Shown here: positions 19,815 to 45,831 of the stretch, piece by piece
Layout of the letters: every line of letters starts with the position of its first letter
How positions within the stretch are numbered: the first letter of the stretch is position 1
From: Sulfurisphaera ohwakuensis
GTDB taxonomy: Archaea > Thermoproteota > Thermoprotei_A > Sulfolobales > Sulfolobaceae
Assembly: GCF_009729055.1 (NCBI RefSeq)
Contig: NZ_CP045484.1
Location: 806,001-870,000, forward strand
Length of the DNA: 64,000 bases
Reading direction: 5' to 3'
Program-made: the position numbers and the translations under genes
The notes under the pieces: model-generated
Databases searched by the model: none
What the model was told of the DNA's origin: nothing
Seen by the model: only the letters and a program-made list of their open reading frames with translations

Positions 19815-20005
19815 CGAGTCTAGTTTTGAAAATACTAATATATAAATATTTCTACTATAATAGGAACTTAGGATCATTTTAATAGAAATAATTCTTCTTA
19901 ATTGAGCTTTAGGATTAAACTAAAATTTGAATAGTTTAACAAGTGGTTTAAGAGATCTAATGTAACTTTTCCTTTTAAAGTATTTAACCAGGGGCTTTCC
20001 TTTAT

Positions 20006-20680: not shown

Positions 20681-20748
20681 ACATTTACCTACAAAAATAT
20701 AAATTTGTTTGCATACTTTATTTAAATTAAAAACGCGTATTTACACTT

Positions 20749-21120
20749 ATGAGTGAAAAAATTATATTCCCGGATGGAAGAGAAGTTGATCTCCACGAAT
20801 TTATAGCATTTATGTATGGTTTATCAACTAGTGATGTTGAAGTCTTACATTTGCTTATGGAAAGCAAAGATAAACTTGATGCAGATGAAATTGCTGAGAA
20901 GTTAAAAGTAACAAAAGCCTCAGTAAGTAAATCATTAAATAATTTATTGGATAAGGGCTTAATAGAAAGAGACAAGGCTGAAGGTGCAGAGAAGAAAAAA
21001 GGAAGGCCTAGTTATGTGTATTGGGTGGATAAAGATAAGTTAATCTATAAGTTAGAGAAAGATTTAGAGAAATTGGCTAGTAGTATGAAAGAAGGGTTAG
21101 AAAAGCACATACCACAATAA
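20749..21120 (+). CDS. Winged-helix transcription regulator, TrmB/Lrs14-like
   Basis: 123 residues. A helix-turn-helix lies at about 45-66 (LDADEIAEKLKVTKASVSKSL), followed by the wing GLIERDKAEGAEKKKGRPSYVYWV and a charged coiled C-terminal helix suited to dimerisation. Similar small winged-helix proteins (MarR/TrmB/Lrs14 groups) are abundant in Sulfolobales. It may be linked with the KaiC-like ATPase gene upstream and the small membrane protein downstream. Confidence 0.68.
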   Translation: MSEKIIFPDGREVDLHEFIAFMYGLSTSDVEVLHLLMESKDKLDADEIAEKLKVTKASVSKSLNNLLDKGLIERDKAEGAEKKKGRPSYVYWVDKDKLIYKLEKDLEKLASSMKEGLEKHIPQ

Positions 21121-21155
21121 TTTTTAAATAGTCATTTTAATATTATTTTTCTCAT

Positions 21156-21443
21156 ATGATAACTGAGTCTGGAATAATAAGTATGGTAGTAGCATTCATT
21201 CTAGGTTTACTTATAGGTCTATTAATAAAGAAAGTAATACAAATTGGTTTAATAATACTTGCGATAATAATTATTCTAATAGCTGTGGGGGCTTTATCAC
21301 CTTCTACTGTTATACATGGTATTGAAAGTCTTGGTGTTTACGCTAGTACAGCTGAATCTTTTGTTAAAAATGAAATTTCAATTTTACCATATAATTCAAT
21401 ACTGTTCATTATTGGGTTAATAATTGGCTTAGTTAAAGGCTAA
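21156..21443 (+). CDS. Small membrane protein
   Basis: 95 residues, with two adjacent N-terminal helices (10-48), a short loop and a C-terminal helix rich in Gly/Ile ending in GLVKG. FUN14-like proteins have this size and pattern, but no decisive motif is visible. It is convergent with the HtpX gene, with a four-base overlap of the ends. Confidence 0.5.
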   Translation: MITESGIISMVVAFILGLLIGLLIKKVIQIGLIILAIIIILIAVGALSPSTVIHGIESLGVYASTAESFVKNEISILPYNSILFIIGLIIGLVKG

Positions 21444-22375
21444 AATATCATTGGTTTTGTTAATTTATAAATCATCTTAATTCTTTTTGCCGGATGTGGG
21501 TGAGTGGATAGAATATCGGAAAATATACTTGTTTTTTCTCTTAATAGATCTTCAATTAGAAGGTCTGGATCACTTTCCTTTACTTTTGTCGGTGGGATAG
21601 TAACTATAATTCCTCTGAACGGATCTAATCTAACGTTCTGCATATAAATCTCTATTTTAGCCAAAGCCTTAGCCAAATTCCATGCTCTCTCTCTAAATAG
21701 TTCATAAGAAAAGTAATCTGCAAAACTCTCTCTTAGTCTATTAAACCATAATACGAATAATTGAAGGAAGAAAGTTATAATAAATAAGATTCCACCAATC
21801 GCCAGCATAGTTAGGCCAACTAATATGTCAAACTCATCAACAGCAAATATTAGCGTAGCCCACCCTACAGTGAGCAATATATTACTGATGAAGCCTAAAA
21901 TTGATGGTATTAAACCTATAGCTAATCCTATTTCAACATCATTATGTTTAATATGTCCAAGCTCATGCCCTATTACACTCTCAAGCTCTTCTGGAGTAAG
22001 AATTTGAAGTAGCGGAATAGTTATTCCAATTCTCTTTCCAGTAATGTAATTTCCATAAGCAAATGCATTAGGATAAGGTTCATCAACTAGAAAAACTCTA
22101 GGAGTTTTAATACCAGCTCTCCTTGCTACACTTTCAATTAAATCATAAACCCATCCGTAACTAGGGTCGTCTCTAGTAACCTCAACTGAATTTCTCTCTA
22201 CTAAATATGGCGATATGAGCCATTGTACTAGCCATAATATTAGTAGAAATATTATAGAAAAGACTACAGGAAATTTTAAAAAATCTATAATTACTAAAGA
22301 AAATATTCCCTCTGAAATTATCGTTAAAAATAATGCGACAATCATATTAATTTTTAATGAAGTACCTATTTCCAC
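21440..22375 (-). CDS. htpX: HtpX-like membrane zinc metalloprotease (M48)
   Basis: 311 residues. Two N-terminal helices, the FLVDEPYPNAFAYG motif, the zinc site VIGHELGHIKHND (His137, Glu138, His141), two further helices and RESFADYFS supplying the third ligand (Glu) are all present. HtpX degrades damaged membrane proteins on the cytoplasmic side. Length and order are normal. It provides an in-window reference for the M48-like proteins of the 31-38 kb region. Confidence 0.85.
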   Translation of the reverse strand: MEIGTSLKINMIVALFLTIISEGIFSLVIIDFLKFPVVFSIIFLLILWLVQWLISPYLVERNSVEVTRDDPSYGWVYDLIESVARRAGIKTPRVFLVDEPYPNAFAYGNYITGKRIGITIPLLQILTPEELESVIGHELGHIKHNDVEIGLAIGLIPSILGFISNILLTVGWATLIFAVDEFDILVGLTMLAIGGILFIITFFLQLFVLWFNRLRESFADYFSYELFRERAWNLAKALAKIEIYMQNVRLDPFRGIIVTIPPTKVKESDPDLLIEDLLREKTSIFSDILSTHPHPAKRIKMIYKLTKPMIF

Positions 22376-22403
22376 ACTCTAAGATTAAGAATAAAAAATA
22401 ATA

Positions 22404-22901
22404 TTAAGTTAATGCTTTCAAAGCCTCTTCTACTTGTCTTATCTTGTTCTTAAATTCTTCTACTTGCTTGCTTAATTCTTCATATTTCTTCTTATATTCT
22501 TCTAATTGTTTATTAACTTCCTCATACTTTTTGTTACATTGCTCTTCTGTTAGGTATCTAATTATTCTCAAATTACTGAAAACTAGCTTTTGATTCTGCT
22601 CATCATATTCAGCATCTACAAGAATTCTTACTACATCTAACTTATCAATTTTCATTTGATTTACGATTACATCATATAATTGTTTATTAAGTTCAGAAAC
22701 ATCTCGTATAATAATATCCTTTGGAACCATTTTACTAAATGCTACTAAAGCGACTCTTCTAAGCTTATCAGCATACCTAGCAGCAATTATTAATCCTGTG
22801 CTTAATTCCATCTTATTTTTTCCAATAGCTGTAGCTCTAGCTATTGTTTGCTCGTATTCTTCTGCTCTTTCTAAATCTCTTGTTTCATCTTCTTTTGGCA
22901 T
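22404..22901 (-). CDS. DUF2258-family protein with C-terminal coiled coil
   Basis: 165 residues from ATG at 22901 (MPKEDETRDLERAEEY). The core MELSTGLIIAARYADKLRRVALVAF is the characteristic opening of the archaeal DUF2258 family; the C-terminal third (KKYEEVNKQLEEYKKKYEEL and on) is a coiled coil. A longer upstream reading with a hydrophobic stretch is possible but uses promoter-like sequence. Family function is not established. Confidence 0.7.
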   Translation of the reverse strand: MPKEDETRDLERAEEYEQTIARATAIGKNKMELSTGLIIAARYADKLRRVALVAFSKMVPKDIIIRDVSELNKQLYDVIVNQMKIDKLDVVRILVDAEYDEQNQKLVFSNLRIIRYLTEEQCNKKYEEVNKQLEEYKKKYEELSKQVEEFKNKIRQVEEALKALT

Positions 22902-23188
22902 AGTTATATATTCTCCTTTCAAAAATAAAAACGTTTCGTTAAAGAGAAACTTCATCATAGAAGCGTTATACAAAATAAAAAAACTTTAATAGCACTAGAA
23001 GTCAGTATGGGAATCTCTTTTTTCTGAGATAAATAATAACATTAATCAAAATTGAACAAAACCAGTATCATTCAAATAAAACCACATATATTTTATGATA
23101 TCGAGTATAATTAAATATATTTTTATTAGAAATACAGGAAATATCGAATTAATTTCACGTGATTAAAAAGGAGTACATAGAGTTAGCT
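22902..23188. other. AT-rich intergenic region
   Basis: About 290 bases upstream of the DUF2258 gene, holding its promoter; nothing else is recognisable. Confidence 0.35.
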
Positions 23189-27122: not shown

Positions 27123-28314
27123 TTATTCTACTTTCCCTTGGTAATACAAGACTTTCAGTACTATCGATAAAGTTTTTAATTTACCACATAATTGATTAAA
27201 AAGTATGAAGAACGAGAAAGAACTAGAAGTTGCAAGGAGCGAATTCATCAAGGCATTCAACCACCTAGTTGGAATACTTAGAATGAAGGGACTCAAAAGA
27301 AAAGTAGCACTAGGCCTAACACTCATGACACTAATAGGAGGAAGAGCAAGCATAAGAAACACAGCAATAACATTCGGACTAAACTACGCAAACCTATTAG
27401 AAGCACTAGAACGCCTTGAAGAAGCATGGAACACTACCTTAATACACTAAGCAAAACAATAGTAGGACCCGTAGTGATTATAATAGACGACACATTCGAC
27501 CACAAACCATACTCAAGAATAGAAGAAATAGCAAGCAAATACGGGAACTACATCTTCTACTACTCCACACACAAGAAATTCGAACCAGGAATACAAGTCC
27601 TCACAATAGCCTTATACGACTTAGCCACGGGAAAAAACTACTTAGTCGGCGCTTTCCCATACGCAACAAGAAAAATGTGGGAAAGCGGAATAATAAACGA
27701 GTTCAAGACAAAGATAGAGATGGCTGCAGAAATAATTGAGATACTCAAGAGTAAATTCACCATAGCTAGGGTTGTGTTTGATTCTTGGTATTGGTCTGAG
27801 AAGTTGGTGAGGGGTTGTGTTGTTTCTGAGTTGAGGTCTAATGGGAGGCTCTTAAGGGTTAGGTGTTTGGAGGGAGGGGGGACGTTGGATGTGGAGGGGC
27901 ACATCCACGTCCGAGATCTCCCTCCCGGCTCTTACTTGGCTGACCTAACCCTTGAGAGTCGAGTTATTACTATAAAGTTGCTAATACTGGTATATAAATC
28001 TAATAGGTTAAACTTGTACTCTACTGATCTTAGCTTGAGTGATGAGGAGATAGAGAGGACTTGGAGGATTAGGTGGGAGATAGAGAAGTTTCACAAGGAT
28101 ATTAAGGCTCTTGGTATGCAAGATTCCTCTTTCTTAAAGAGGAAGAGGTTTCAAGGTTACTTGCTTCTCTTCGTGATGGTTGTTAACACGGTTAGAGATT
28201 TGATTAGCTCCCTTAACTTGAGGAGTGTGGAGGAGTTTCTCCGGTTCGTTGAAAATCGTTTAGGGGGTGCTCTAGGCTTGATGAAAACTTTTAAGTTACG
28301 TTAAAGTAGAATAA
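27123..28314 (+). mobile_element. IS701/ISC1217-like insertion sequence
   Basis: Perfect 12-bp terminal inverted repeats TTATTCTACTTT (27123-27134) and AAAGTAGAATAA (28303-28314) enclose the two-part transposase gene. The size, 1192 bp, suits this group. No clear target duplication was found beside the ends. Confidence 0.7.
27205..28304 (+). pseudogene. IS701-like transposase in two overlapping frames
   Basis: The first frame (27205-27450, 81 aa) holds the N-terminal helical part; the second (27426-28304, 292 aa) holds the DDE core: IIIDDTFDHKPYS (Asp), VVFDSWYWS (Asp) and RWEIEKFHKDIKALG (Glu). The second frame is -1 relative to the first and they overlap by 25 bp near an A/C-rich stretch. 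Either the gene carries a frameshift, or it uses a programmed -1 shift as some IS do. A related C-terminal fragment (ENRWDVEVLIRELKALG) lies at 47085-47450. Confidence 0.7.
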
Positions 28315-28636: not shown

Positions 28637-28879
28637 TTATTGAATTTTTTGCACTGAGGACATTCTCTTGAGTGCCTCATTATATATTCTTGTTAACGTC
28701 TCCTTAAATCTTCTCCACATCTCATTATTTCGCATAATATCATTTAATGCTATTAAAATACCCTTATATAATCCTAGAAATCTTATATTTATTTTCAATG
28801 GAGAAAATATTGAAATAGTTAGTGAAATTAAAAACGTTAAGTAGCTGATAATGAAAAATTTTCTCAAGATACTATTCAA
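28637..28879 (-). CDS. Small protein at end of peptide module 1
   Basis: 80 residues: one N-terminal hydrophobic segment (8-26), then a basic, amphipathic C-terminal half (MWRRFKETLTRIYNEALKRM). Its start overlaps the stop of the upstream membrane-protein gene by eight bases. It is too short for recognition; the tight overlap makes it a likely third gene of the module, perhaps an immunity or accessory protein. Confidence 0.5.
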   Translation of the reverse strand: MNSILRKFFIISYLTFLISLTISIFSPLKINIRFLGLYKGILIALNDIMRNNEMWRRFKETLTRIYNEALKRMSSVQKIQ

Positions 28880-29921
28880 TTATACCACCCACCATTATGA
28901 GTAATAAATTTGAAAGCATAATCACAATAAGTATAATAATGTATGACAGATAAGCTTTGCCTAAATTTTTCTTTAATAATAATGGAGAAACAATATAGGC
29001 TAATAAAACTGACATTAAAGATATCGGAATTGTTATTACATTAAACAAAAGCGTAATTGGAGAGATTAAATATACAATGTTTATTATTATAAGAAACACA
29101 AGTATGGACTTCAGAATATTCACATTCTCGAAACCAAAGCTGTGCATGATAATTGATGCAGAGTAAGTTATGACTAACATTATTATTAGGAATAGAAGAA
29201 TTTTACTTAATAATACCATTAAAACTAACCTGTCTATGACTATACCTTGAAATATTAAGTAAAAAATGTAAAAATCACTAAAATTAACTGTAAATAGGAC
29301 TATAAAGGGAAACATAAGTCGAGTTATATAACTTCCACTGGATTCATCCTCCTTAATACTTTGAAATAAGCTCATGGGTAAGGAATTTATAAAATAAGAG
29401 GGTATAAAACCAAGAAAAGCTAAGGATAATGCAAAAATAATTAGAGTTGGTAGTATCCCTAATTTATGGTCTAATTGAATTACCCAATCTAAAAATCCCT
29501 TCGCTGTACTAGGATTTATATATATAATATGGTATACAAAGTCAAACATGGATAATAATACATTAAATAAAGAAATAATTATTAGATTTTCTAAAGTGCG
29601 TGACAGAAAATCTTGCATTTCGTTACCAGCTCTAATTAAATTTTTAAATATATTATCAGTAAGAGGTAATATTATTATTGATACTATATATGTAATTATG
29701 ATTAAATACAACATTATAACTTCATTAACATTCATAGATAATATAAGAAGTAATATCCAATTAATTATCAGGATAAGTAATGATTTCAATTCTAATATTG
29801 GATTCTTCTTCAGATAAAAGATTTCTGATTGCTTGCGATAAGATTGTATTCTATGTATTAAATAAATTATAAAAAATATTAAGTTAAATAAATCTAAGAA
29901 AAAGGGTTGACTTAAATTCAT
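28872..29921 (-). CDS. Polytopic membrane protein of peptide module 1
   Basis: 349 residues with about nine or ten transmembrane helices and short loops; Leu and Ile make up much of the sequence. It has no HExxH or ATPase motif. It starts 30 bp after the small hydrophobic precursor gene, the same order as in the modules at 31.5, 35.7 and 36.3 kb (small peptide, then large membrane protein). Likely role: export, maturation or immunity for that peptide (inference). Confidence 0.55.
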   Translation of the reverse strand: MNLSQPFFLDLFNLIFFIIYLIHRIQSYRKQSEIFYLKKNPILELKSLLILIINWILLLILSMNVNEVIMLYLIIITYIVSIIILPLTDNIFKNLIRAGNEMQDFLSRTLENLIIISLFNVLLSMFDFVYHIIYINPSTAKGFLDWVIQLDHKLGILPTLIIFALSLAFLGFIPSYFINSLPMSLFQSIKEDESSGSYITRLMFPFIVLFTVNFSDFYIFYLIFQGIVIDRLVLMVLLSKILLFLIIMLVITYSASIIMHSFGFENVNILKSILVFLIIINIVYLISPITLLFNVITIPISLMSVLLAYIVSPLLLKKNLGKAYLSYIIILIVIMLSNLLLIMVGGIIE

Positions 29922-29951: not shown

Positions 29952-30320
29952 TTACATACCTACTATAATTGCTGTTACACCTATTGCAGTAAATGGATCT
30001 GCTAAGGCCAATAAATATATAAATGTTCCGATATCGCCTCCAGACATTACAAGAGCCATTTGAACTATTGGATTATTCATAGCTAGTTGATATAGGCCAA
30101 ACATATCTGAAATAGCCGCAATACCGTTTTGAACAGCACCGCCAATATTTCCACACATAGCATCCGATGCTGCAAAATATGCTGCAATAGCATGCCCTTC
30201 TATTATACCACTCGAAACTATTCCCTCTAATGGAACTAGTAGCATTACAAACATTAAAACACCTATAGCTTTTAGCATTGGAACTATAGTTCTCCTCTTT
30301 ATAGTTATCTGTTGCGACAT
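29952..30320 (-). CDS. Small hydrophobic precursor-like protein, module 1
   Basis: 122 residues. A basic N-terminus (TIKRRTIVPMLKAI) leads into a hydrophobic leader with a central proline (GVLMFVMLLVPLEGIVSSGI). A Gly/Ala-rich central part with two cysteines nowhere paired by motif (one Cys, DAMCGNIGG) follows, and the C-terminus is YLLALADPFTAIGVTAIIVGM. The P-x-x-x-I leader pattern and the C-terminal xDPxxAxxx hydrophobic end recur in the precursors of the cassette pair at 31524 and 35762. Such leader plus hydrophobic core peptides resemble bacteriocin precursors. No database family recognised. Confidence 0.6.
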   Translation of the reverse strand: MSQQITIKRRTIVPMLKAIGVLMFVMLLVPLEGIVSSGIIEGHAIAAYFAASDAMCGNIGGAVQNGIAAISDMFGLYQLAMNNPIVQMALVMSGGDIGTFIYLLALADPFTAIGVTAIIVGM

Positions 30321-30481
30321 TACACCACTATAATATTAATCAATTATAGCTTTTTATTTTTTTCTTTAATAATATTCAGTCAATTTGTAGTCTCTTATGG
30401 GAGGATTACTCGGTTTTTACACTTTCATAAAAAGGTATTTGATTTTGAAAAAGAATATAAATGATTTGACTATATTCATAT

Positions 30482-31102
30482 ATGATTATGCGAATAAGAT
30501 TTAGGAAGATTAATTACACTACAACTTATATCTTAAGCACAATTGAATCCTTTCTTTTCTCCATCTTCTTAACTGCATTAATTCTAATATTAATTATTAG
30601 GGAGATCAACTTAATCACGATTTTCACTATCTCATTACTTCTCGCAATAGGAAGTTATATTGACATTCTTATTTACGATAGAGTTTATTTTAACCTCTCT
30701 GGGTTCTTTTTTCCTCTTTCTTTGACTATCTTCTTACTTATTATAATTTACAAGGAGTTATTGCAAATTTATTATGATTTATTCCTACTTCTTTTTTCCT
30801 CCTTATTATTCTTTATCGAGAATAGGTTATATTTTAAGAATAGTATAGGTTACTCGATAAAATACTCAATACTAATTTCAATGTTTTCCGGTCTAGTTAA
30901 TTTTTTAATATTTAATAAATTTTCTTATTATTTTGCTTTTATAAGTACTTTTATTCCAACTTTACTTCTTGATTTTAAATTAAGTATAAGATGTAACCGT
31001 GAGGGAATCATAGGAGGTTTAGGAGTAAGAGACTTATTAGTTTTGATGCCAATTGTAGCCATGTTGATGGCGTTCTTGCTTGATATAATGTTACCTAAAT
31101 AA
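30482..31102 (+). CDS. Polytopic membrane protein, DUF1614-like
   Basis: 206 residues, six or seven helices. The C-terminal CNREGIIGGLGVRDLLVLMPIVAM is reminiscent of the DUF1614 membrane family, where a GGxGxxDxhhLxxI motif ends the protein, and it resembles LVIIGGLSGFDGLYVIPFM in the gene at 33395. The two may be paralogues. It is divergent from module 1 and upstream of cassette A. Function unknown. Confidence 0.5.
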   Translation: MIMRIRFRKINYTTTYILSTIESFLFSIFLTALILILIIREINLITIFTISLLLAIGSYIDILIYDRVYFNLSGFFFPLSLTIFLLIIIYKELLQIYYDLFLLLFSSLLFFIENRLYFKNSIGYSIKYSILISMFSGLVNFLIFNKFSYYFAFISTFIPTLLLDFKLSIRCNREGIIGGLGVRDLLVLMPIVAMLMAFLLDIMLPK

Positions 31103-31342
31103 CCTCAGTACTATTGAAGAAATGTAAAGCGTGAATATCTTTATTAACTCAACATAGATAAAGCCTCTTATTTTCTTACTGTTAATTTATTATTTACACT
31201 TTCTAATACTTTAAAAGATAAGGTCCTCTGCTTGACATAGGAAAGGTGTCTTGTGTAATTTAAGAGACATTCTTGTACTTTAACTACATTTTTATATATA
31301 TGTAAGTAGATTAACGCTGATACTTTATCTACATCTACAATG
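31103..31342. other. AT-rich intergenic region before cassette A
   Basis: 240 bases without a gene, lying between the DUF1614-like gene and the outer inverted repeat. Nothing is recognisable. Confidence 0.35.
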
Positions 31343-31660
31343 TTTAATTTTAAGCTTTACTATGCAAACTGTTTAAAAAGATTTGCTAATTAAAAGAATA
31401 GTTAGCATATGTTATGTTTATGTATTGTTTTTTAAATAAAGGAGAAAGGTCTTAAATTATGAAAATTTTTTAAAGAAAGAAATAAGTCATAGCATATTAA
31501 AATGTAACATAGAATAAAGAATTATGATAACAACTGTAGTTCGAAGTGAAGAAACAGAAATAGACATTAAGAAAGCTATAAAAACGAGCCTACTAATGAC
31601 ATTTTTCCTAGTAGCAATCCCAATAAACAGTATTATGCTAACACAAGCAATACTAGCTTA
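31343..31660 (+). repeat. Outer inverted repeat IR1, left copy
   Basis: 318 bp repeated in inverted orientation at 35626-35943 without any gap; by eye only two bases differ, both silent in the precursor gene. It spans 181 bp of upstream DNA including the promoter, plus the first 45 to 46 codons (leader) of the small precursor. Identity ends abruptly at AGCTTA inside the coding sequence. Confidence 0.92.
31493..31503 (+). promoter_or_regulatory. Promoter of cassette A inside IR1
   Basis: CATATTAAAAT lies about 26 bp upstream of the ATG at 31524, fitting a leaderless TATA promoter. Upstream, GCTAATTAAAAGAATAGTTAGC has complementary ends (GCTAA/TTAGC) and may be a regulator site. Both are repeated identically in front of cassette B. 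Confidence 0.5.
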
Positions 31661-31868
31661 CGGCTTTAATTCTCCGCTTTATACCGTGTTTACTAGTGGA
31701 TCTCCTTCATATTTCTTGTGTACTGCTCTTCCAATATTTCTAGACTGGGGTAGTGTACTATTATCAAATGGTGCATCGATATCAGAAGTGCTTTATGGAA
31801 TACTTATTGGTACAGCTATGTCAGATCCAGTGGTACTAGCAGTCCTTGGTGTTTTATTAACTGCGTAA
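31524..31868 (+). CDS. Small hydrophobic precursor-like protein, cassette A
   Basis: 114 residues. Residues 1-46 (leader: MITTVVRSEETEIDIKKAIK, then a hydrophobic run with proline, FFLVAIPINSIMLTQ) are identical to cassette B. After ...ILAY the sequence is completely different: a Ser/Gly/Leu-rich core with one Cys and a C-terminus GTAMSDPVVLAVLGVLLTA. The shared leader with a variable core, and the conserved DP-containing hydrophobic end, suggest a secreted peptide precursor of bacteriocin type. The large membrane protein gene follows 14 bp downstream. Intact. Confidence 0.65.
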   Translation: MITTVVRSEETEIDIKKAIKTSLLMTFFLVAIPINSIMLTQAILAYGFNSPLYTVFTSGSPSYFLCTALPIFLDWGSVLLSNGASISEVLYGILIGTAMSDPVVLAVLGVLLTA

Positions 31869-31882
31869 AAGGGGTTTAAATT

Positions 31883-32959
31883 ATGTTAAAGTTAAAGTCT
31901 TTTTTATTAAATTTCTTAAATTTTGAAGAAATAAATACTTGGGGATCAGTTACATTGTTTTTAGCAGCAGAATCTCCAGCATTAATTTCTCCTATCTATT
32001 ATATATATCTAGGAATTTTGTTAATCCCTATATTTTTTATAGTTTTTGGATATTTAATACCATTATTTCTTGTAAGGAGATTATATAAAGTTGAAGAAGA
32101 CGGTTTTACATACTATATTGGTGAGAGAAAATATATAGGAAGAAGACTAAGCTCAGATTCAGTAGTCATATACACTATTAAGCCTTTTGTTGTAGTTTCG
32201 GATGGAATATCTTATTCTAAGATAAGTGAGTTAAGATATAAAATAGAAAGTAAATTAATTCTTTATGAAAAATCTAGGCAATATATGATAAATATTTTAA
32301 TAGGATATATAATAGGTATTATATTTTATATGATTTCTAAGTTACCTAGGTCTTACTCTTTTATCATAGGTATGAGTGTCTTGTATATTTCTTTTATTGT
32401 AGGATTCATAGCAGCTATTGGTTATTATAAAATAAAATATGGAGTGGGAGGGAATTCTTTTATAGAGAGTTTTTTGAGACAAACTATATACTCAAGTAAT
32501 GTTAATGTAAGGGGTGTAGTTTATCTAATGCCCAATATCTTGATATTTTCTCTAGTAACATCATTACCGCTTGCTTTAATAAAACCAAGTCTTATCACCT
32601 CATTACTCTTTTTAGAGAAATTCGCAGTTGAGACTGCATTGCTTTCAATCATAACCTTTTTAACCTCTATACTTTTCACCTCTTTAGGACTCACTACTGA
32701 GGAGCTCTTAGCCTCATTTTCCCAATACATATTCTTTTCTACAATTCCCCAATTATTCCTATTTGGAGCTTTAGTCCATCCATCACTCCGATTCATATAC
32801 CTAGTACTATTGATAACGTTCACTCTACTAGCTTACATTGCTGCAATACTATCTACTAATAATAAGAGAAGAGCTATAATAGCTTGGTTGATTATAGCTC
32901 TCGTGACTATATTCTCATCTATACTTCTCTCATTAATTACTATATCATTTAAAATATAA
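31883..32959 (+). CDS. Polytopic membrane protein resembling an inactive M48 peptidase, cassette A
   Basis: 358 residues: two N-terminal helices, a cytoplasmic domain (about 70-135) and six or seven further helices. KPFVVVSDGISYSKISELRY aligns with the M48 pattern PFVVhSsGlh..h...EL, but where the peptidase has HExxH this protein has KIESKLILYEK, so zinc ligands are missing. Residues from the second third on are identical in cassette B in two blocks (131 and 557 bp), whereas the N-terminal 95 residues differ. Probable partner (maturation, immunity or export) of the precursor just upstream. Confidence 0.6.
   Translation: MLKLKSFLLNFLNFEEINTWGSVTLFLAAESPALISPIYYIYLGILLIPIFFIVFGYLIPLFLVRRLYKVEEDGFTYYIGERKYIGRRLSSDSVVIYTIKPFVVVSDGISYSKISELRYKIESKLILYEKSRQYMINILIGYIIGIIFYMISKLPRSYSFIIGMSVLYISFIVGFIAAIGYYKIKYGVGGNSFIESFLRQTIYSSNVNVRGVVYLMPNILIFSLVTSLPLALIKPSLITSLLFLEKFAVETALLSIITFLTSILFTSLGLTTEELLASFSQYIFFSTIPQLFLFGALVHPSLRFIYLVLLITFTLLAYIAAILSTNNKRRAIIAWLIIALVTIFSSILLSLITISFKI
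32166..32296 (+). repeat. Middle inverted block M, copy A
   Basis: 131 bp matching 34834-34964 in inverted orientation with about two differences seen. It encodes the M48-like signature region (YTIKPF to YMINIL). Flanking coding DNA on both sides is clearly diverged, so it is an island of identity. Confidence 0.85.
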
Positions 32960-32960
32960 A
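32404..32960 (+). repeat. Inner inverted repeat IR2, left copy
   Basis: 557 bp matching 34164-34720 in inverted orientation; every line compared by eye was identical. It covers the C-terminal 185 codons and the stop of the membrane protein, ending one base past the stop codon. Both ends of the match are abrupt. Confidence 0.92.
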
Positions 32961-32971
32961 GGTGATAAAAC

Positions 32972-33385
32972 ATGAATTTACAAAAAGGGGCTTATTATTT
33001 TATCGTTTTTATAGGATTTTTGGCCTCTATTCCTTTATCCATTCTCAACCCATTAAAGGTAAGCTCTCATTATCTACCATTATATTTAGTTGTTAATATT
33101 ATTATAGCTAATTTTATAGTCTTTACTTTTATCTATTTTATAATGAATAATATAAAATTACCCATTCTTTTAATTCCATGGTTATTTATTTCCTCTTTAA
33201 TAGAATTTTATATTGGTATGTCAGCTATTATGGAAAACTTATCTGTTGGATATTTTACAGTTTTATTAATATTTCTTGAGTTCTATGGAATGTTATATTT
33301 TGCCCAAAGGAAAAGCTTATATTTAGGAATAGTTTATATAGTAATTCTAGCTTTCATAGAAATTTTAGTTTATGATAAAATGTAG
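32972..33385 (+). CDS. Hydrophobic membrane protein in the invertible centre
   Basis: 137 residues, four or five helices, no motif. It begins 12 bp after the stop of the cassette A membrane protein, with a purine-rich AAAGGTGAT ahead of the ATG, so it is read in the cassette A operon. It lies inside the 1.2 kb segment bounded by the IR2 copies and would be handed to cassette B if that segment flipped. Confidence 0.5.
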   Translation: MNLQKGAYYFIVFIGFLASIPLSILNPLKVSSHYLPLYLVVNIIIANFIVFTFIYFIMNNIKLPILLIPWLFISSLIEFYIGMSAIMENLSVGYFTVLLIFLEFYGMLYFAQRKSLYLGIVYIVILAFIEILVYDKM

Positions 33386-33394
33386 GTGTAGAGT

Positions 33395-34066
33395 ATGAGA
33401 ATAAAAAGGTATGATAAAAATGAATTTTTATTTCTTGCGGTTCTAGCTTTAATCCCCTCGTTTCCTCTATTCGCAATTGTCAGTTTTCTTACTACTCATA
33501 GTATTAGTATATTGATTTTTCCGTTTAGCTATTTAAATGCATTTTTGGCAGGGTTTTATCTTAAGATAGATGATTTTCATGCGATAAATCTTTCTGTATT
33601 TACAGAGATAGGAATCTCCATGTTTTTTATATTGTTTTTTATATCCAAAGAAAATCTACTCTTGTTGCTAGTATCTATTATAGTAACTTTTGCTTTAGCG
33701 GGTAAACTAAGTAAAGTTACTAAAATTGGTGTAACCTCAAATATTGGTGTGATCTTCTATTTTTCATTGTTAAATCTATTCCTATTTAATAGTCAGATAT
33801 TAGTACAGAATACTTTTATTTCATCTTTTATAGGAATTCTTTTACAAGATATTTTAAAATCTAGAAAAATACATCCTGACATTAATAGTTTGCCTTTTAA
33901 GGTAAAGGAAAAATTAGTAATTATAGGAGGTCTTAGTGGATTTGACGGCCTATATGTTATACCCTTTATGAGTACTTTTATCAATTTCCTCATAACTTAC
34001 ATATTTAATTTCCATAATCCCTTCATGCTACAAAATTTGATTCAGAATACCTTTAAGTCATTTTAG
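33395..34066 (+). CDS. Membrane protein in the invertible centre, DUF1614-like
   Basis: 223 residues with six or seven helices and a C-terminal IIGGLSGFDGLYVIPFMSTF that resembles the end of the protein at 30482 (GGLGVRDLLVLMPIVAM). It follows the 137-residue gene by nine bases and is the last gene of the cassette A operon. Family suggestion is weak; function unknown. Confidence 0.5.
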   Translation: MRIKRYDKNEFLFLAVLALIPSFPLFAIVSFLTTHSISILIFPFSYLNAFLAGFYLKIDDFHAINLSVFTEIGISMFFILFFISKENLLLLLVSIIVTFALAGKLSKVTKIGVTSNIGVIFYFSLLNLFLFNSQILVQNTFISSFIGILLQDILKSRKIHPDINSLPFKVKEKLVIIGGLSGFDGLYVIPFMSTFINFLITYIFNFHNPFMLQNLIQNTFKSF

Positions 34067-34163
34067 TAGTTTTAAGGCTACAGATCCCAGAGTTTGCAAA
34101 TTAGGTTAAAGAGGCAAGAGCTCGTCGTTTGCGATAACTCCAAAATCGTTTTTACAAGAATAA

Positions 34164-34720
34164 TTTATATTTTAAATGATATAGTAATTAATGAGAGAAG
34201 TATAGATGAGAATATAGTCACGAGAGCTATAATCAACCAAGCTATTATAGCTCTTCTCTTATTATTAGTAGATAGTATTGCAGCAATGTAAGCTAGTAGA
34301 GTGAACGTTATCAATAGTACTAGGTATATGAATCGGAGTGATGGATGGACTAAAGCTCCAAATAGGAATAATTGGGGAATTGTAGAAAAGAATATGTATT
34401 GGGAAAATGAGGCTAAGAGCTCCTCAGTAGTGAGTCCTAAAGAGGTGAAAAGTATAGAGGTTAAAAAGGTTATGATTGAAAGCAATGCAGTCTCAACTGC
34501 GAATTTCTCTAAAAAGAGTAATGAGGTGATAAGACTTGGTTTTATTAAAGCAAGCGGTAATGATGTTACTAGAGAAAATATCAAGATATTGGGCATTAGA
34601 TAAACTACACCCCTTACATTAACATTACTTGAGTATATAGTTTGTCTCAAAAAACTCTCTATAAAAGAATTCCCTCCCACTCCATATTTTATTTTATAAT
34701 AACCAATAGCTGCTATGAAT
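34164..34720 (-). repeat. Inner inverted repeat IR2, right copy
   Basis: Inverted partner of 32404-32960 with the same length and no gap. An apparent 100-codon open frame on its plus strand is only the shadow of the membrane-protein gene; the same shadow is found on the minus strand of the left copy. Confidence 0.92.
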
Positions 34721-35316
34721 AACGCAATAAAAAGTAAGTATAAAAAGCTCATAAAAAGAATAAAAAACGTAGATGGAGAGATAAGTTTACTAAAAGTTGA
34801 ATATAATATAATTCCTATTAAGTAACCCGCTAGAATATTTATCATATATTGTCTAGATTTTTCATAAAGAATTAATTTACTTTCTATTTTATATCTTAAC
34901 TCACTTATCTTAGAATAAGATATTCCATCCGAAACTATAACAAAAGGCTTAATAGTGTATATGATTATTGCGTCCTTCTTTCTATTTCTTATATATTTTT
35001 TATCACAGATATAGTATGTAAAACTTCCTTCTTCAATCCTAGATAATTTTCTAGTGACAAAAAATGGAAATATATAACTATCGATTATAAAAAATATAAA
35101 TATAAGAATAATACTTTCATCTATTAAGATTTGATAAAACAAGCTTATACCAGCCCATGCTGCAAACTCTGCTATTAAAAACATAGTATATGATTCCCGA
35201 TTATCTATCTTTTTCCTTATAAAATATACTAAGAATGGATATATAGCATAGAAAATAAGCCCATATAATACAAGAAGCTGAATAAGCTGAAATTGACTTA
35301 CACTACTGAGAGACAT
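34165..35316 (-). CDS. Polytopic membrane protein resembling an inactive M48 peptidase, cassette B
   Basis: About 383 residues from ATG at 35316 (MSLSSVSQFQLIQLLVLYG). The C-terminal 185 codons are identical to cassette A, as is the M48-like block KPFVIVSDGISYSKISELRY with no HExxH. The N-terminal part differs. A better-placed start, ATG at 35345 (MVKL, as in cassette A's MLKL), is out of frame by one base at a seven-T tract. With eight Ts it would read straight through, so the gene is probably frameshifted or switched off. Longer upstream reading to 35427 is only a shadow of the precursor's end. Confidence 0.55.
   Translation of the reverse strand: MSLSSVSQFQLIQLLVLYGLIFYAIYPFLVYFIRKKIDNRESYTMFLIAEFAAWAGISLFYQILIDESIILIFIFFIIDSYIFPFFVTRKLSRIEEGSFTYYICDKKYIRNRKKDAIIIYTIKPFVIVSDGISYSKISELRYKIESKLILYEKSRQYMINILAGYLIGIILYSTFSKLISPSTFFILFMSFLYLLFIALFIAAIGYYKIKYGVGGNSFIESFLRQTIYSSNVNVRGVVYLMPNILIFSLVTSLPLALIKPSLITSLLFLEKFAVETALLSIITFLTSILFTSLGLTTEELLASFSQYIFFSTIPQLFLFGALVHPSLRFIYLVLLITFTLLAYIAAILSTNNKRRAIIAWLIIALVTIFSSILLSLITISFKI
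34834..34964 (-). repeat. Middle inverted block M, copy B
   Basis: Inverted partner of 32166-32296, same length; see there. Confidence 0.85.
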
Positions 35317-35357
35317 ATATAAGTAAAAAAACCTAGCTTTACCATAAATAATACCCT

Positions 35358-35762
35358 TTATGCAGTAGCTAATAAACCAAGGAAAGCAGCTGCTGTATAA
35401 GGATCTACCCATATCGCTATTCCTCATAATAAACTCACTGGATCACCAGAAATGTAAAATGACATCAAACCATATCCTAACCCGGCCAGTAGCTGTGAAA
35501 AGAATTCAGGTCCATAATCTTGTATTCCAGTAGATAAAGCATCTGTTATACCACTAACCTGAAGAAATGTGGCATATCCAAACGCTGCAGCAGGTCCATA
35601 ATTGCTGTATATATAATATCCAACATAAGCTAGTATTGCTTGTGTTAGCATAATACTGTTTATTGGGATTGCTACTAAGAAAAATGTCATTAGTAGGCTC
35701 GTTTTTATAGCTTTCTTAATATCTATTTCTGTTTCTTCACTTCGAACTACAGTTGTTATCAT
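35358..35762 (-). pseudogene. Small precursor-like gene of cassette B with in-frame TGA
   Basis: Codons 1-46 equal cassette A; then a different core (VGYYIYSNYGPAAAFGYATF and on) runs to TGA at 35424-35426. Beyond the TGA the same frame continues for 21 codons, GIAIWVDPYTAAAFLGLLATA, and stops at 35358-35360. That tail is homologous to cassette A's end (xDPxxxAxLGxLxTA), so the TGA is a nonsense mutation and the intact protein would have about 134 residues. Sulfolobales are not known to use TGA for selenocysteine. Cassette B therefore seems silent. Confidence 0.75.
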
Positions 35763-35943
35763 AATTCTTTATTCTATGTTACATTTTAATATGCTATGAC
35801 TTATTTCTTTCTTTAAAAAATTTTCATAATTTAAGACCTTTCTCCTTTATTTAAAAAACAATACATAAACATAACATATGCTAACTATTCTTTTAATTAG
35901 CAAATCTTTTTAAACAGTTTGCATAGTAAAGCTTAAAATTAAA
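35626..35943 (-). repeat. Outer inverted repeat IR1, right copy
   Basis: Inverted partner of 31343-31660, 318 bp, carrying the same promoter and leader codons for cassette B. The identical pair flanks about 4 kb containing both cassettes. Confidence 0.92.
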
Positions 35944-36270: not shown

Positions 36271-36612
36271 TTGAAGAGCAAAAAGATTGAAATAGATCTT
36301 GCGAATTCCCAAGAAGCAAGAAATGTAATATTAGCTATTTTTGCACTAACACTATTAGCAATATATCCTATAGTACAGACGATGATAGCTGGAATAATTT
36401 TAGGTTCAATGCTTTATGTAGCTGCTGGATCAGGAGCAATAAGTGGTGGGATATTAACTATGGCTAACGTCAATAATATAGTCGGAGCAATTCTTTTGCT
36501 TTTAAGCGAATTCGGTATAGAGTCTATCAGCCTCGATACAATTGATTTGCTGTTCGCTATTGTTGCAGGAATAGGTTTGGGACTTTTTGGGTTAGGAATC
36601 GGCCTTTTATGA
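36271..36612 (+). CDS. Small hydrophobic precursor-like protein, module C
   Basis: 113 residues from TTG at 36271, with GGGTGAT upstream as ribosome site. A charged N-terminus (KSKKIEIDLANSQEARN) precedes a hydrophobic leader with proline (LAIFALTLLAIYPIVQTMIA) like the other modules. A Gly/Ala/Ile/Leu-rich core and a C-terminal AIVAGIGLGLFGLGIGLL follow. It lacks the DP motif. It is first in a three-gene operon with an M48 peptidase and a SpoIIM-like protein. That gene set recalls circular-bacteriocin clusters (hydrophobic precursor, membrane protease or processing protein, DUF95/SpoIIM protein). Confidence 0.6.
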   Translation: MKSKKIEIDLANSQEARNVILAIFALTLLAIYPIVQTMIAGIILGSMLYVAAGSGAISGGILTMANVNNIVGAILLLLSEFGIESISLDTIDLLFAIVAGIGLGLFGLGIGLL

Positions 36613-36624
36613 GGTATTATTGAG

Positions 36625-38142
36625 ATGGTAAACCCCGTAATAAGAGCTATTAGAAAGATTATTTATTTTTTTACGTCCCTAATTCTTGCGGATGTATTAT
36701 TAGCCATAGTGACAGAAACAGTAGCTAAAGGAAACCCATATCTGTACCCCATTTTTACCAAAGTAACTTTAGCTCTATCACTATTTCTTATAGGAGTAGT
36801 AGTAGTTTCATTTGCTATTCTCTTCATTAAGTATCGTAAGATTATAGTACCTTCTGTGCGTGAGGTAGTTCATAGTAAGCGAGAAGATATAATTTATCAA
36901 CCTGCATTAATATCAGTAAAAACTCGTGTTATCAATTCTATTATTATCGGCTTATTGACTTTCTTAATAGTAATATCAGGATTATACTACTTACACTATA
37001 TTGCACCTTATTCTCCTATAGGGTTTGTAGTTGATACATTTATCATATTCACAATTTCAATCTTAGTTGATGGACTTGTAATCTCTAAGATTAAGCCTTT
37101 CAGAGATATAAAACCGGGAGAGGTAAAAGTGGTAACCGTATACTCAAGAACACCAGGTGTTGCGGCTGAAGTATTAACGTTTTCCCGTAATTCCTTTTCT
37201 AAAAGGTTGGTAATTTTAAGTAGTATTTTACCCCCTAGTATCATGGAAACTATAAAAGCTCATGAAATGGAGCACATTAAGGAGCATCATGTACTTATCC
37301 GTTCTATCTTCTTTTATTTAATTATATCCTTAGCCCTTGTGTCGGTTGAACTAATTTCTATTTTTTTATTAGTAGAACTACATCCACATCATTTTTCTTT
37401 TACTATAAATTCTACATATGTAGTCAAAACTTTATTACTCTTAATAAGTCTAATAATTATTTATTTACTAGTTGTGAGGGTTACAGAATCTAGAGCTGAT
37501 GCCGCAGCTTTTAAAGCTATTGGTGCAGAGGCATATGATCACATAGTTACCTTGATCAAAATGTTAAGAGAGAATGCCCAGAAAAATTTTAATCCCGCTT
37601 TGGGCTTGCCCCTTTTAGTGAAGATTTCGCCTTTGCTAGAAAAGATTACTCATACATCCTCTAGAGAGGCCTTGAAGACTGGTGATCCTTTATCATCTTT
37701 GAGTCAATGGGAGATTCCAGCTGTTTTTGCCTTTTTTGGGTCTGTAATAGGAGTTTTAAGGTTTGCTTCTGTGAATCTTATTCTTCTTGCTTTTCCACTC
37801 TTTTTTGTTGGAATGTTTGTTGTTATTGTGCTTGTTGGATTGGTTTTTCTACCTTTGACGAGAAGTTATGGTGGGACGCAGAAGGGAAGGATGAACTTCT
37901 CTTTTCTTGTTTCGGGGATGTACTTGATAACTGATGTTATCACGCTAAGTGTAATTTATAACTTTTATCTTGCCTTACTAGTCCTAGTTTCGGGACTTGT
38001 TTTATCCTTATTAATTGAGAGATCTTTTCTTAGTGATACGAGGACTGCAGTAAAGACTTTCCTAATTACTTTCGCAGTCTATGAGGCTATAAATTTTTCT
38101 CTTTTCCTTATCTTTTTAGGATCTCATCTAGGTGTGTTTTAA
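36625..38142 (+). CDS. M48-like membrane zinc metallopeptidase, module C
   Basis: 505 residues. Four N-terminal helices, then a cytoplasmic peptidase domain with AHEMEHIKEHH (His213, Glu214, His217), two helices, VTESRADAAAF (Glu288 as third ligand, as in HtpX), and a C-terminal membrane region of five or six helices. It is larger than HtpX because of this C-terminal extension, which makes it structurally similar to the longer proteins of cassettes A and B. It lies 12 bp after the precursor gene and is a good candidate for cutting its leader. Active-site residues look complete. Confidence 0.72.
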   Translation: MVNPVIRAIRKIIYFFTSLILADVLLAIVTETVAKGNPYLYPIFTKVTLALSLFLIGVVVVSFAILFIKYRKIIVPSVREVVHSKREDIIYQPALISVKTRVINSIIIGLLTFLIVISGLYYLHYIAPYSPIGFVVDTFIIFTISILVDGLVISKIKPFRDIKPGEVKVVTVYSRTPGVAAEVLTFSRNSFSKRLVILSSILPPSIMETIKAHEMEHIKEHHVLIRSIFFYLIISLALVSVELISIFLLVELHPHHFSFTINSTYVVKTLLLLISLIIIYLLVVRVTESRADAAAFKAIGAEAYDHIVTLIKMLRENAQKNFNPALGLPLLVKISPLLEKITHTSSREALKTGDPLSSLSQWEIPAVFAFFGSVIGVLRFASVNLILLAFPLFFVGMFVVIVLVGLVFLPLTRSYGGTQKGRMNFSFLVSGMYLITDVITLSVIYNFYLALLVLVSGLVLSLLIERSFLSDTRTAVKTFLITFAVYEAINFSLFLIFLGSHLGVF

Positions 38143-38600
38143 TGGATAAGGAAATACTTAAACTCTACTTAACTTTTTGGTCTGGCCTACTCTCTGGATG
38201 GGTGATTAATAACTTTACAGGTTTTGATAAGCCGGTATTGGTACACGAGCTTCCAATACCAGATTACGCTTTGCTTACTCATATTATAGAGGAAAACTTT
38301 ATCTTTGCGTTAATACTTTTCTTAATAGGTAATGGGACTGCACAGAAAATAGTTGCATTCGCTATATCCGCATTCTATGGCCAAATCGTATTTAAGTTTG
38401 GGCTAATAGTTGGATTAGTAGGTACAATACCTCATGGTTTGATAGAGCTTCTTGGTTTTAGCTTCATAGCCTATGCAGGGCAAAAATTCAAGGCTAAGAC
38501 AAGCTTCGTTAAACCATTATTGATAGGCTATATAATGTTAGCGGTAGCTGCCCTTATAGAATCCACGCTCTCTATTTATATTTTTCAACATGTAGTTTAA
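38142..38600 (+). CDS. SpoIIM/DUF95-like membrane protein, module C
   Basis: 152 residues, four helices. GLVGTIPHGLIELLGFSFIAYAGQK matches the SpoIIM/DUF95 signature (PHGxxExxxxxxA near the middle). Its ATG shares a base with the TAA of the peptidase gene (TAATG), so they are translated together. DUF95 proteins occur in circular-bacteriocin gene clusters of Firmicutes, where they help in maturation, secretion or immunity; whether that applies here is inference. Confidence 0.65.
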   Translation: MDKEILKLYLTFWSGLLSGWVINNFTGFDKPVLVHELPIPDYALLTHIIEENFIFALILFLIGNGTAQKIVAFAISAFYGQIVFKFGLIVGLVGTIPHGLIELLGFSFIAYAGQKFKAKTSFVKPLLIGYIMLAVAALIESTLSIYIFQHVV

Positions 38601-44534: not shown

Positions 44535-45831
44535 GTGAGCTACCCCGCCCTGAAGGGCGGAGCTTCCTGCTTCATAGCCCCACCTTGCCCGTAGCTTTTC
44601 GCTACGGGTAGAGGGTAGAGCTCCACAGGCACTAAGGATGGCTCCCACCCCGATCTCTTCAATATGTTTAAGCAAGCGTTATAGTCACGATCAGTAACCC
44701 AACCACACTTAGGACAGCTGAACACACGGTCAGTCAAAGTTAACTCTTTCTTTACGTACCCGCATTTGGCACACATCTTTGAAGTATATGCTGGATTTAT
44801 TAACAACAGTTTCTTTCCATATTTTTCCAACTGATATTCTAGTATTCTCTTCAACTCATGGAATGCAACATCGTGTAACCTCATCCTCAACTTCCTTTCT
44901 GACTCCTCCACCAGTTGTTTAACATCTATATCCTCCATTACTACAACGTCATAATGTTGTGCGAACCACTTACCCAACTTCATATAGAAGTCTTGTCTCA
45001 AGTTCTTCAAGTGTTCATAACCCCTAGCTAACTTCACTTTTGCTTTAAACCAGTTTTTCGACAAGAACTCCTTCCTCGAGAGAACCTTGTGGAGTTTCCT
45101 TATCTTCTCAAGTGCCTTCTCATAAGGTCTCAAGTTAGGGAAATAGAATCCATCACTCGTGGTTAGGAGTTTCTCTACCCCAACATCTATTGCAACTACC
45201 TTACCAGTCTTTGGGAATTGAGAGAATCCAACACCTTCAACCATGAAGGAGACATATACTCTCTCTGAACGTGTTAGTTTAACTACCACCCTCTTTACTT
45301 TGTCAAGCGGGAAGTCCCTATGAACAATGACCTTAAACACGCCGAGATTTGATAACCTCAATAACACCAGCTTCTTCTTATTCTTCCTACTCTTAGTCCT
45401 TATTTCCCTGCTCTCAAGTATTTTCCACCCACTTTGTGGGTAAACAAGAGAGTAGTACTTATGGGGTTTCTTCTCCTTAGGAAAGTGTGCTAGACCTTTG
45501 AAGAACCTATCCCTAGCATCGTAATAACGATCGGCAATTTGCTGTACTACTTGTGAGTAGAGTTGTTGGTACTCCTTATCTTGCTTTCTTAGATCTAGAG
45601 CGAGCTGTCTTAACTCCGTTTGTGTAAGACCCTTTCCGTCCCTTTGGTAGAAATAGATATCTGCCCAGCGTAGGGTGTTGTACATCTCACATGCTAACCT
45701 CAACTGGGCTTTTAACGCCCTAATTGTTTGATCGTCAGCATATGCACGAAAGCGGAACCCTACGTTGGGCATTAATAAAATGTTCGAGAGTGGATTAAAA
45801 AATATTTCTACAAAGGGGGCTATCCATCCCC
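44535..45831 (-). mobile_element. TnpB element copy 2 (main body)
   Basis: Same 1297 bp from GGGGATGG at the left end (45831) to GCTCAC at the right end (44535) as in copy 1. The distal 40 bp or so of the left end lie at 47059-47098, displaced by an inserted IS. The guide beyond the right end would be CAAATATCTGG, different from copy 1. Confidence 0.78.
44540..45772 (-). CDS. tnpB: TnpB RNA-guided nuclease, intact copy
   Basis: 410 residues. Ruv[13 protein letters not shown] (Asp196), Ruv[12 protein letters not shown] (Glu280), a C4 zinc ribbon (Cys334, 337, 353, 356) and Ruv[14 protein letters not shown] (Asp361/363) are all intact. TnpB uses an RNA from its element's right end to cut DNA next to a short target-adjacent motif, and is the ancestor of Cas12. 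Gln260 is the codon that became a stop in copy 1. Its upstream region, with the left-end palindrome, has been split by the IS at 45832-47059, which may affect expression. Confidence 0.88.

What the first reader, a model, noticed from the sequence alone, without database searches (positions are those of the whole stretch)
31343..35943. Nested inverted repeats around two variable peptide/membrane-protein cassettes
Seen: IR1 (318 bp; 31343-31660 and 35626-35943; two differences), block M (131 bp; 32166-32296 and 34834-34964) and IR2 (557 bp; 32404-32960 and 34164-34720; no difference seen) are arranged symmetrically. Between them lie regions of unequal length and clear divergence (505 vs 661 bp between IR1 and M; 107 vs 113 bp between M and IR2). 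IR1 carries promoter plus leader codons, IR2 the common C-terminus. Identity blocks ending inside codons argue for recombination (gene conversion or inversion) keeping the ends alike while the cores vary. This looks like a cassette-variation system, unusual for Archaea.
Basis: partly seen in the sequence, partly recalled or inferred. Interest (0 to 1): 0.9.

Follow-up and report, generated by a model that had tools for sequence, protein, structure and literature searches.

The report
Recombining peptide-toxin-like cassettes in Sulfurisphaera
In this hot-spring archaeon, genes for small secreted, toxin-like peptides and their partner membrane proteins keep identical ends and different middles, and comparison with a sister species shows the ends recombining, pairing middles with new ends and flipping a pair of genes between two copies.

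Summary
The repeats are exactly as described and are no assembly accident: the genome (length identical to S. ohwakuensis DSM 12421) is one closed PacBio+Illumina contig, and a sister species has the orthologous locus. IR1 is promoter plus secretion leader of a roughly 112-aa peptide gene; IR2 is the C-terminal half of the membrane-protein gene behind it. IR1 has a third genomic copy, in a 1.43-kb block 99.9% identical between two loci. Leaders are 98-100% identical within each genome but 91.5% between species. Membrane-protein C-termini behave alike (100% versus 82.7%), while peptide cores follow orthology. That is gene conversion. One core (A3) has had its leader replaced. The central 1.2 kb (137- and 223-aa genes) is inverted between the two species at IR2, and in each species the cassette holding these genes is intact while the other is damaged. 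Best reading: a locus of archaeocin-like peptide/membrane-protein cassettes, diversified and rearranged by ordinary homologous recombination through shared ends. Recombination and inversion are shown by comparison. Toxin and immunity functions are inferred. Ongoing, programmed switching is unproven. No relative of the A peptides was found in S. acidocaldarius, a sulfolobicin producer; the peptide and main membrane-protein families match no library.

The parts
28872..29921 (-). B1 partner membrane protein (349 aa)
   Evidence: ORF; relatives only in G000 and G002; weak colinear C-half match to the A partner
29952..30320 (-). B1 peptide (122 aa): constant 32-aa leader, variable core
   Evidence: 5' 240 nt identical to B3 in the second locus, core 35-63% in most windows
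30224..31652 (.). Constant block B leader - 206-aa gene - A leader, 99.9% identical to the second locus (L004 9392-10820)
   Evidence: 1428/1429; 87.3% to sister species
30482..31102 (+). Constant 206-aa membrane protein between the divergent B and A cassettes
   Evidence: protein identical in the two G000 loci, 88% in G002
31343..31660 (+). IR1 left: upstream region plus A leader codons
31524..31868 (+). A1 peptide (114 aa, mature about 72 aa, no K/R), intact
31883..32959 (+). A1 partner membrane protein (358 aa), putative immunity or processing protein, intact
32166..32296 (+). Block M left (conserved soluble loop of the membrane protein)
32404..32960 (+). IR2 left: C-terminal half of the A1 partner
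   Evidence: 557/557 identical
32961..34163 (.). Central segment, inverted in the sister species (90.8% identical in inverse orientation)
32972..33385 (+). 137-aa membrane protein (related to the 142-aa protein of the B operon)
   Evidence: dN/dS 0.39
33395..34066 (+). 223-aa membrane protein, DUF1614-like (below gathering score)
   Evidence: dN/dS 0.22
34164..34720 (-). IR2 right: C-terminal half of the A2 partner
34165..35313 (-). A2 partner membrane protein, likely read from an internal ATG (about 382 aa); the original start is frameshifted
34834..34964 (-). Block M right
35424..35762 (-). A2 peptide, truncated by an in-frame TGA relative to the 133-aa orthologue in G002
35626..35943 (-). 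IR1 right: upstream region plus A leader codons
36271..36612 (+). C1 peptide (113 aa), third peptide family of the locus
   Evidence: dN/dS about 1.0
36625..38142 (+). C1 partner: membrane M48-family metallopeptidase (505 aa)
   Evidence: Pfam PF01435 above cut-off; relatives in 5 of 31 genomes
38142..38600 (+). 152-aa SpoIIM-like membrane protein of the C operon
   Evidence: PF01944 E=1.3e-4, below cut-off; S. tokodaii-sized genome homologue above it

Best explanation
The locus holds two convergent copies (A1, A2) of an operon for a small secreted hydrophobic peptide and a partner membrane protein, next to related B and C operons. Each operon has constant ends (upstream region plus leader; C-terminus of the partner) and a variable middle (mature peptide plus N-terminal half of the partner). 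The constant ends are long stretches of DNA identity. Ectopic homologous recombination between them (gene conversion and crossing over) keeps them alike, lets variable middles be joined to new constant ends and new neighbours, and inverts the segment between the two IR2 arms, so that the 137- and 223-aa genes sit behind either A1 or A2. The peptides are most likely archaeocins (antimicrobial peptides against relatives) and the partners their immunity or processing proteins. Shown by sequence comparison: constant and variable structure, conversion, leader replacement, re-pairing of B and A cassettes, inversion between species. Inferred: homologous recombination as the agent, secretion, toxicity, immunity.
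For: Leaders: G000 A1/A2/A3 98.4-100%, G002 A1/A2 100% (129/129), between species 91.5%. Partner C-terminus: G000 556/556, G002 remnant vs A2 163/164, between species 82.7%. Cores: A2-A2 75%, A3-A3 84.5%, A1-A1 65%, paralogues 46-59%. Trees: variable part groups A2 with A2 and A3 with A3 at 100/100, while an A2-A2 grouping is rejected for the leader block (p-AU 3e-65) and an A1-A2 grouping for the variable part (2e-64). Identity persists in the damaged A2 copy, so selection on A2 is a poor explanation. A3 of G000 has the A1/A2-type leader (100%), its G002 orthologue a different one (63%). Second G000 locus: its A side matches G002 locus II, its B side matches G002 locus I, the joint being the constant block. 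Centre 90.8% identical but inverted. In G000 A1 is intact and A2 has a TGA; in G002 A2 is intact and A1 has lost most of its partner gene and about 94 bp upstream. Toxin-like traits: N-terminal hydrophobic leaders, mature 59-95 aa, hydrophobic, acidic, almost no Lys/Arg; dN/dS about 1-1.6 in C peptides versus 0.12-0.54 in their partner genes; M48 and SpoIIM-like partners. The same constant/variable pattern recurs in B and C operons. G000 length equals CP045484, closed with long reads at 362x (PMC7067957).
Against: No toxicity, secretion or immunity was tested, and no hit to any known toxin or immunity family was found. Only two species carry the A family, so each event rests on one comparison. 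Intact copy coinciding with the accessory genes in both species has a 1 in 4 chance if random. The left arm of G002 is scrambled, so the inversion there is not a clean one-step product. High dN/dS of A1 and A2 cores may reflect decay.
Confidence: 0.66

Rival explanations
1. Active phase or cassette variation: cells of one culture switch the centre (and which peptide operon is complete) by frequent inversion through IR2.
For: Centre inverted between species; IR2 arms perfectly identical, as recent exchange would leave them.
Against: One cassette is damaged in each species, so a flip would give a broken combination; no recombinase recognised in the locus; the published assembly of a genome of this length closed as one orientation.
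Confidence: 0.15
2. Recent plain duplication: A1 and A2 (and the two loci) are young copies whose middles merely evolve fast, without conversion.
For: Copies are adjacent and inverted; peptide cores show raised dN/dS.
Against: Cores of A2 and of A3 are closer to their counterparts in another species than to each other, so the copies predate the species split, yet their ends are 98-100% identical within each genome. A2 of G000 and A1 of G002 are damaged, so constraint on them is an unlikely cause.
Confidence: 0.04
3. Not toxins: variable secreted or membrane peptides of another kind (surface recognition, virus receptor masking, vesicle proteins) with partner membrane proteins for processing.
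For: No toxin homology; acidic and K/R-free cores differ from classical cationic antimicrobial peptides.
Against: One small secreted peptide plus a dedicated membrane protein per operon, with M48 and SpoIIM-like partners, fits bacteriocin-type clusters better; surface-filament genes are not nearby in the ORF list.
Confidence: 0.25
4. Mobile element: IR1 are the terminal repeats of a transposon carrying the segment.
For: Insertion sequences crowd the region; IR1 are terminal and inverted.
Against: IR1 is coding and promoter sequence; no transposase lies between the repeats; flanks show no target duplication; the locus is in the same arrangement beside the same C operon in G002.
Confidence: 0.02
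5. Assembly artefact: repeats or orientation are wrongly joined.
For: Long identical repeats are classic trouble spots; the A2 TGA and T7 frameshift could be consensus errors.
Against: Closed long-read assembly, mean read length about 6.7 kb from the published numbers, plus 481x Illumina; the three IR1 copies have different flanks; independent G002 assembly has the same A1/A2 layout.
Confidence: 0.03

Closest known systems
Polymorphic toxin systems (constant trafficking part, exchangeable C-terminal toxin cassette with immunity gene; PMC3482391)
   Same: Constant 5' part and variable 3' part of the secreted protein, exchanged together with the partner gene directly downstream; damaged cassettes beside intact ones.
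   Different: Toxin is a ~60-95 aa hydrophobic peptide, not a multi-domain protein; the partner gene itself has a constant C-terminus, so the cassette has homology on both sides; the families are unrelated. PMC3482391 reports classical systems as generally absent from most archaea.
Pneumococcal blp bacteriocin locus (PMC4860687)
   Same: Small-peptide genes whose leader parts have recombined between family members; switches of bacteriocin groups between close relatives.
   Different: Double-glycine leaders and dedicated ABC export there; Sec-like leaders here; no inverted pair with a shared accessory segment is described in the passages read.
Sulfolobicins SulA/SulB of Sulfolobus acidocaldarius
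   Same: Peptide or protein antimicrobials of Sulfolobaceae; S. acidocaldarius and S. tokodaii are reported producers (PMC5733018, PMC3718332).
   Different: Reported subunits are about 22 kDa (PMC5733018) versus 6-10 kDa mature here; no profile hit of the A family in the S. acidocaldarius-sized genome.
Inverting hsdS genes of Streptococcus pneumoniae (PMC4948785, abstract only)
   Same: Inverted related genes that recombine and exchange or flip variable parts.
   Different: No population evidence of switching here; no recombinase in the locus.
Circular-bacteriocin gene clusters (from own knowledge: SpoIIM/DUF95-type membrane protein beside a hydrophobic ~60-70 aa bacteriocin)
   Same: Hydrophobic peptide with SpoIIM-like protein in the C operon.
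   Different: Sec-like leader and M48 protease instead of the usual short leader and ABC genes; circularisation unknown; the A operon has no detectable SpoIIM protein.

Membership tests
Sulfolobicin (SulA/SulB) | Sequence relationship to the S. acidocaldarius sulfolobicin proteins | tested here: not met
   A-peptide profile finds no match in the S. acidocaldarius-sized genome G026 or any of 29 other Sulfolobaceae outside G000/G002. SulA is Saci_1272. B peptides were not profiled there; the C peptide of G003 found no match in G026. The presumed sulfolobicin genes of G026 were placed only by position.
Sulfolobicin (SulA/SulB) | About 20-22 kDa secreted antimicrobial subunits | tested here: not met
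   Mature A, B, C peptides are 59-95 aa.
Polymorphic toxin / cassette-exchange bacteriocin locus | Constant secretion part joined to variable core by recombination | tested here: met
   leader replacement at A3.
Polymorphic toxin / cassette-exchange bacteriocin locus | Cognate partner gene exchanged together with the core | tested here: met
   N-terminal half of the partner is as variable as the core and stays with it between species.
Polymorphic toxin / cassette-exchange bacteriocin locus | Toxicity of the core and protection by the partner | not testable with these tools
   Needs bench work.
Site-specific invertible element (inverton, shufflon) | Short inverted sites with a dedicated site-specific recombinase | tested here: not met
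   Arms are 318 and 557 bp of coding DNA; no recombinase among the locus ORFs by Pfam. Elsewhere in the window only selected ORFs were scanned (transposases).
Site-specific invertible element (inverton, shufflon) | Both orientations present in one population | not testable with these tools
   No reads held; reads are public.
Composite transposon | Transposase within the repeats and target-site duplication outside | tested here: not met
Circular bacteriocin cluster | SpoIIM-type membrane protein beside the peptide gene | tested here: inconclusive
   C operon only: E=1.3e-4 below cut-off in the window, 7.5e-7 above cut-off in G003; not detected in A or B operons.
Circular bacteriocin cluster | Head-to-tail circular mature peptide | not testable with these tools
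   Needs mass spectrometry.
M48 metallopeptidase (A partner as a degenerate relative) | Profile similarity to M48 membrane peptidases | tested here: inconclusive
   No signal by hhalign or HMM; low-confidence model has strands followed by a long helix in the loop; fold search uninformative.

The most novel reading that the evidence does not exclude
An archaeal cassette-switching system: the convergent A1/A2 pair is an expression site plus a second cassette, flipped and re-templated by recombination through IR1 and IR2, so that a Sulfurisphaera lineage can change which peptide and immunity protein it uses while always keeping the accessory genes behind the active one.
Probability: 0.17. Interest if true: 0.85.

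Novelty: new variant of a known kind. Interest (0 to 1): 0.58.

Why it matters
If the peptides are archaeocins, this is a worked example in Archaea of how weapon and protection are renewed together: homology on both sides of a two-gene cassette lets one recombination event bring in a new peptide core and the matching part of its partner. It gives three new peptide families with an odd chemistry (hydrophobic, acidic, almost free of Lys/Arg, which at pH 2-3 would be largely uncharged; inference). It also supplies a natural inversion between species that can be looked for directly in public long reads.

Tried and rejected
Relatives of the A partner outside the genus: none in 31 Sulfolobaceae except two, none in GTDB contigs, IMG/VR or plasmids. 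M48 relatives in IMG/VR: none. PHROGs, PADLOC and NCBIfam gave no relevant family. Structure models of the A peptide and partner have low confidence (pLDDT 58 and 53) and Foldseek gave no match at E<=0.001; VIA rows are the usual helical-bundle background, with no M48 chain listed. A as a degenerate M48 and the 137-aa protein as SpoIIM were considered and are unsupported. Sulfolobicin homology was considered first and dropped. Horizontal transfer of the locus was considered because G002 showed only 65% matches to the right-hand flank, but another 8-kb stretch is 89-92% identical to G002 and 96% to G003, so descent with loss in G003 suffices. The row 'imm3 N-half' is out of frame and was discarded. 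Makarova et al. 2019 (archaeal antimicrobial peptides) is not held, so whether these families are among its candidates is not excluded.
Full report
Observation. The three inverted pairs are present at the stated coordinates: IR1 318 bp with two differences, M 131 bp with two, IR2 557 bp with none. The window is G000:C1:806001-870000 of a single 2,803,915-bp contig. That length is the published length of Sulfurisphaera ohwakuensis DSM 12421 (CP045484), closed from PacBio (362x; about 6.7 kb per read by the paper's own numbers) and Illumina reads (PMC7067957); identity by length is an inference.

Anatomy. Two convergent operons face each other. A1 (31524-31868) and its partner membrane protein (31883-32959) run right; A2 (35762-35424) and its partner (about 35313-34165) run left; between them lie a 137-aa and a 223-aa membrane protein gene reading right. 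IR1 spans the upstream region and the first ~46 codons of the peptide, a charged-then-hydrophobic N-terminus that looks like a secretion leader (inference); IR2 is the last ~185 codons of the partner. To the left, divergent, lies a B operon (peptide 29952-30320, partner 28872-29921), separated by a 206-aa gene. To the right lies a C operon (peptide 36271-36612, M48 membrane peptidase 36625-38142, SpoIIM-like protein 38142-38600).

Other copies. The same genome has a second locus (L004, G000 ~697-702.6 kb) with B3, the same 206-aa gene and A3; the block from B leader through the 206-aa gene to A leader is 1428/1429 identical to the window, and identity stops in the peptide cores on both sides. 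Among 31 Sulfolobaceae genomes only G000 and one congener, G002, carry the A peptide, A partner, B partner and 206-aa families. The closest species by sequence, G003 (length of S. tokodaii 7, 96% over 8 kb versus 89-92% for G002), lacks them. The M48 protein of the C operon has relatives in five genomes, with a small hydrophobic peptide gene in front of it in G000, G002, G003, G020 and G030.

Conversion. Constant ends are alike within a genome and different between genomes: leader codons 98.4-100% within G000, 100% between A1 and A2 of G002, 91.5% between species; partner C-termini 556/556 within G000, 163/164 within G002, 82.7% between. The middles follow descent: A2 cores 75%, A3 cores 84.5% between species, versus 46-59% between paralogues. 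Trees agree, and the conflicting groupings are rejected. Paralogues that predate the species split but share identical ends have exchanged those ends since. A2 of G000 ends at an in-frame TGA relative to its orthologue and its partner's original start is shifted by one base, yet its ends match A1 almost perfectly, so exchange is a better reason than constraint.

Cassettes joined to new ends. G000-A3 and G002-A3 cores are orthologous, but G000-A3 has the A1/A2-type leader and upstream region (310/310 identical to A1) while G002-A3 has another (58-63%). The A side of L004 matches G002 locus II and its B side matches G002 locus I, the joint being the constant block. The window's B1 is about equally far from both other B operons through most of its length. 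So B and A middles have been re-paired across the constant block. In C operons the two G002 copies share about 660 nt of identical peptidase C-terminus over divergent middles, and G000-C1 looks mosaic between them.

Inversion. In G002 the arms keep their places (A1 beside the 206-aa gene, A2 beside the C operon), but the centre with the 137/139- and 223-aa genes is reversed, 90.8% identical. One crossover between IR2 arms gives this. The G002 left arm has suffered more: most of its A1 partner gene is gone, a 164-bp reversed piece of partner C-terminus sits at the junction, and about 94 bp upstream of A1 are missing. In each species the cassette followed by the 137/223 genes is the intact one. 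With two species this could be chance (1 in 4), but it suggests that these genes matter for the active cassette.

Function (inferred). Mature parts of A, B and C peptides are 59-95 aa, hydrophobic, acidic and nearly free of Lys/Arg. Partner genes are under purifying selection (dN/dS 0.12-0.54), while intact C peptides are at 1.0 and 1.6; A1 and A2 cores are also raised, which may be decay, and A3 is at 0.31. Peptide plus dedicated membrane protein, protease and SpoIIM-like partners fit an archaeocin with immunity and processing. No family library recognises the peptides or the A and B partners, and models were too poor to judge the fold.

Comparison with the known. It works like polymorphic-toxin cassette exchange (PMC3482391) and like leader recombination at the pneumococcal blp locus (PMC4860687), but belongs to neither by family. 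It is not a sulfolobicin by the tests available. It is not an inverton: the arms are long coding repeats and no recombinase was recognised.

Verdict. Real, recombining, and informative. New variant of a known kind. Programmed switching remains open and can be settled with public reads.

Noticed in passing
36271-38600; L060 5963-8220; L061 6187-8453; L062 6139-8424; L063 5846-8022; L064 8149-10270: A peptide - M48 membrane peptidase - SpoIIM-like operon recurs in five Sulfolobaceae genomes, with fast-evolving peptides: a wider candidate archaeocin family.
   Followed up: partly
29952-30320, 31524-31868, 36271-36612 and relatives: Mature regions of three unrelated-looking peptide families share near-total absence of Lys/Arg and a net negative charge; at pH 2-3 they would be almost neutral, perhaps aiding membrane insertion.
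   Followed up: partly
28637-28879: Third gene of the B1 operon (142-aa type) is truncated to 80 aa next to an ISC1217-type transposase gene (27426-28304).
   Followed up: no
L004:7600-8060: The 137-aa-type gene of the second locus is frameshifted while its neighbours are open.
   Followed up: no
G002:C1:1074275-1074544 (L059): Decayed remnant of a 206-aa-type gene (47% identical, two stops) about 100 kb from the G002 locus, beside the stretch that matches window 19969-22949.
   Followed up: no
7760-8992 and 44540-45772: Near-identical IS605-type orfB (TnpB-like) genes, one split into two frames, plus IS110, DDE and IS1-type transposase genes: a region crowded with insertion sequences.
   Followed up: no
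G026:C1:1081580-1083059: Two adjacent secreted-looking proteins (217 and 277 aa) at about the expected place of Saci_1272 may be the sulfolobicin genes; placed by position only.
   Followed up: partly
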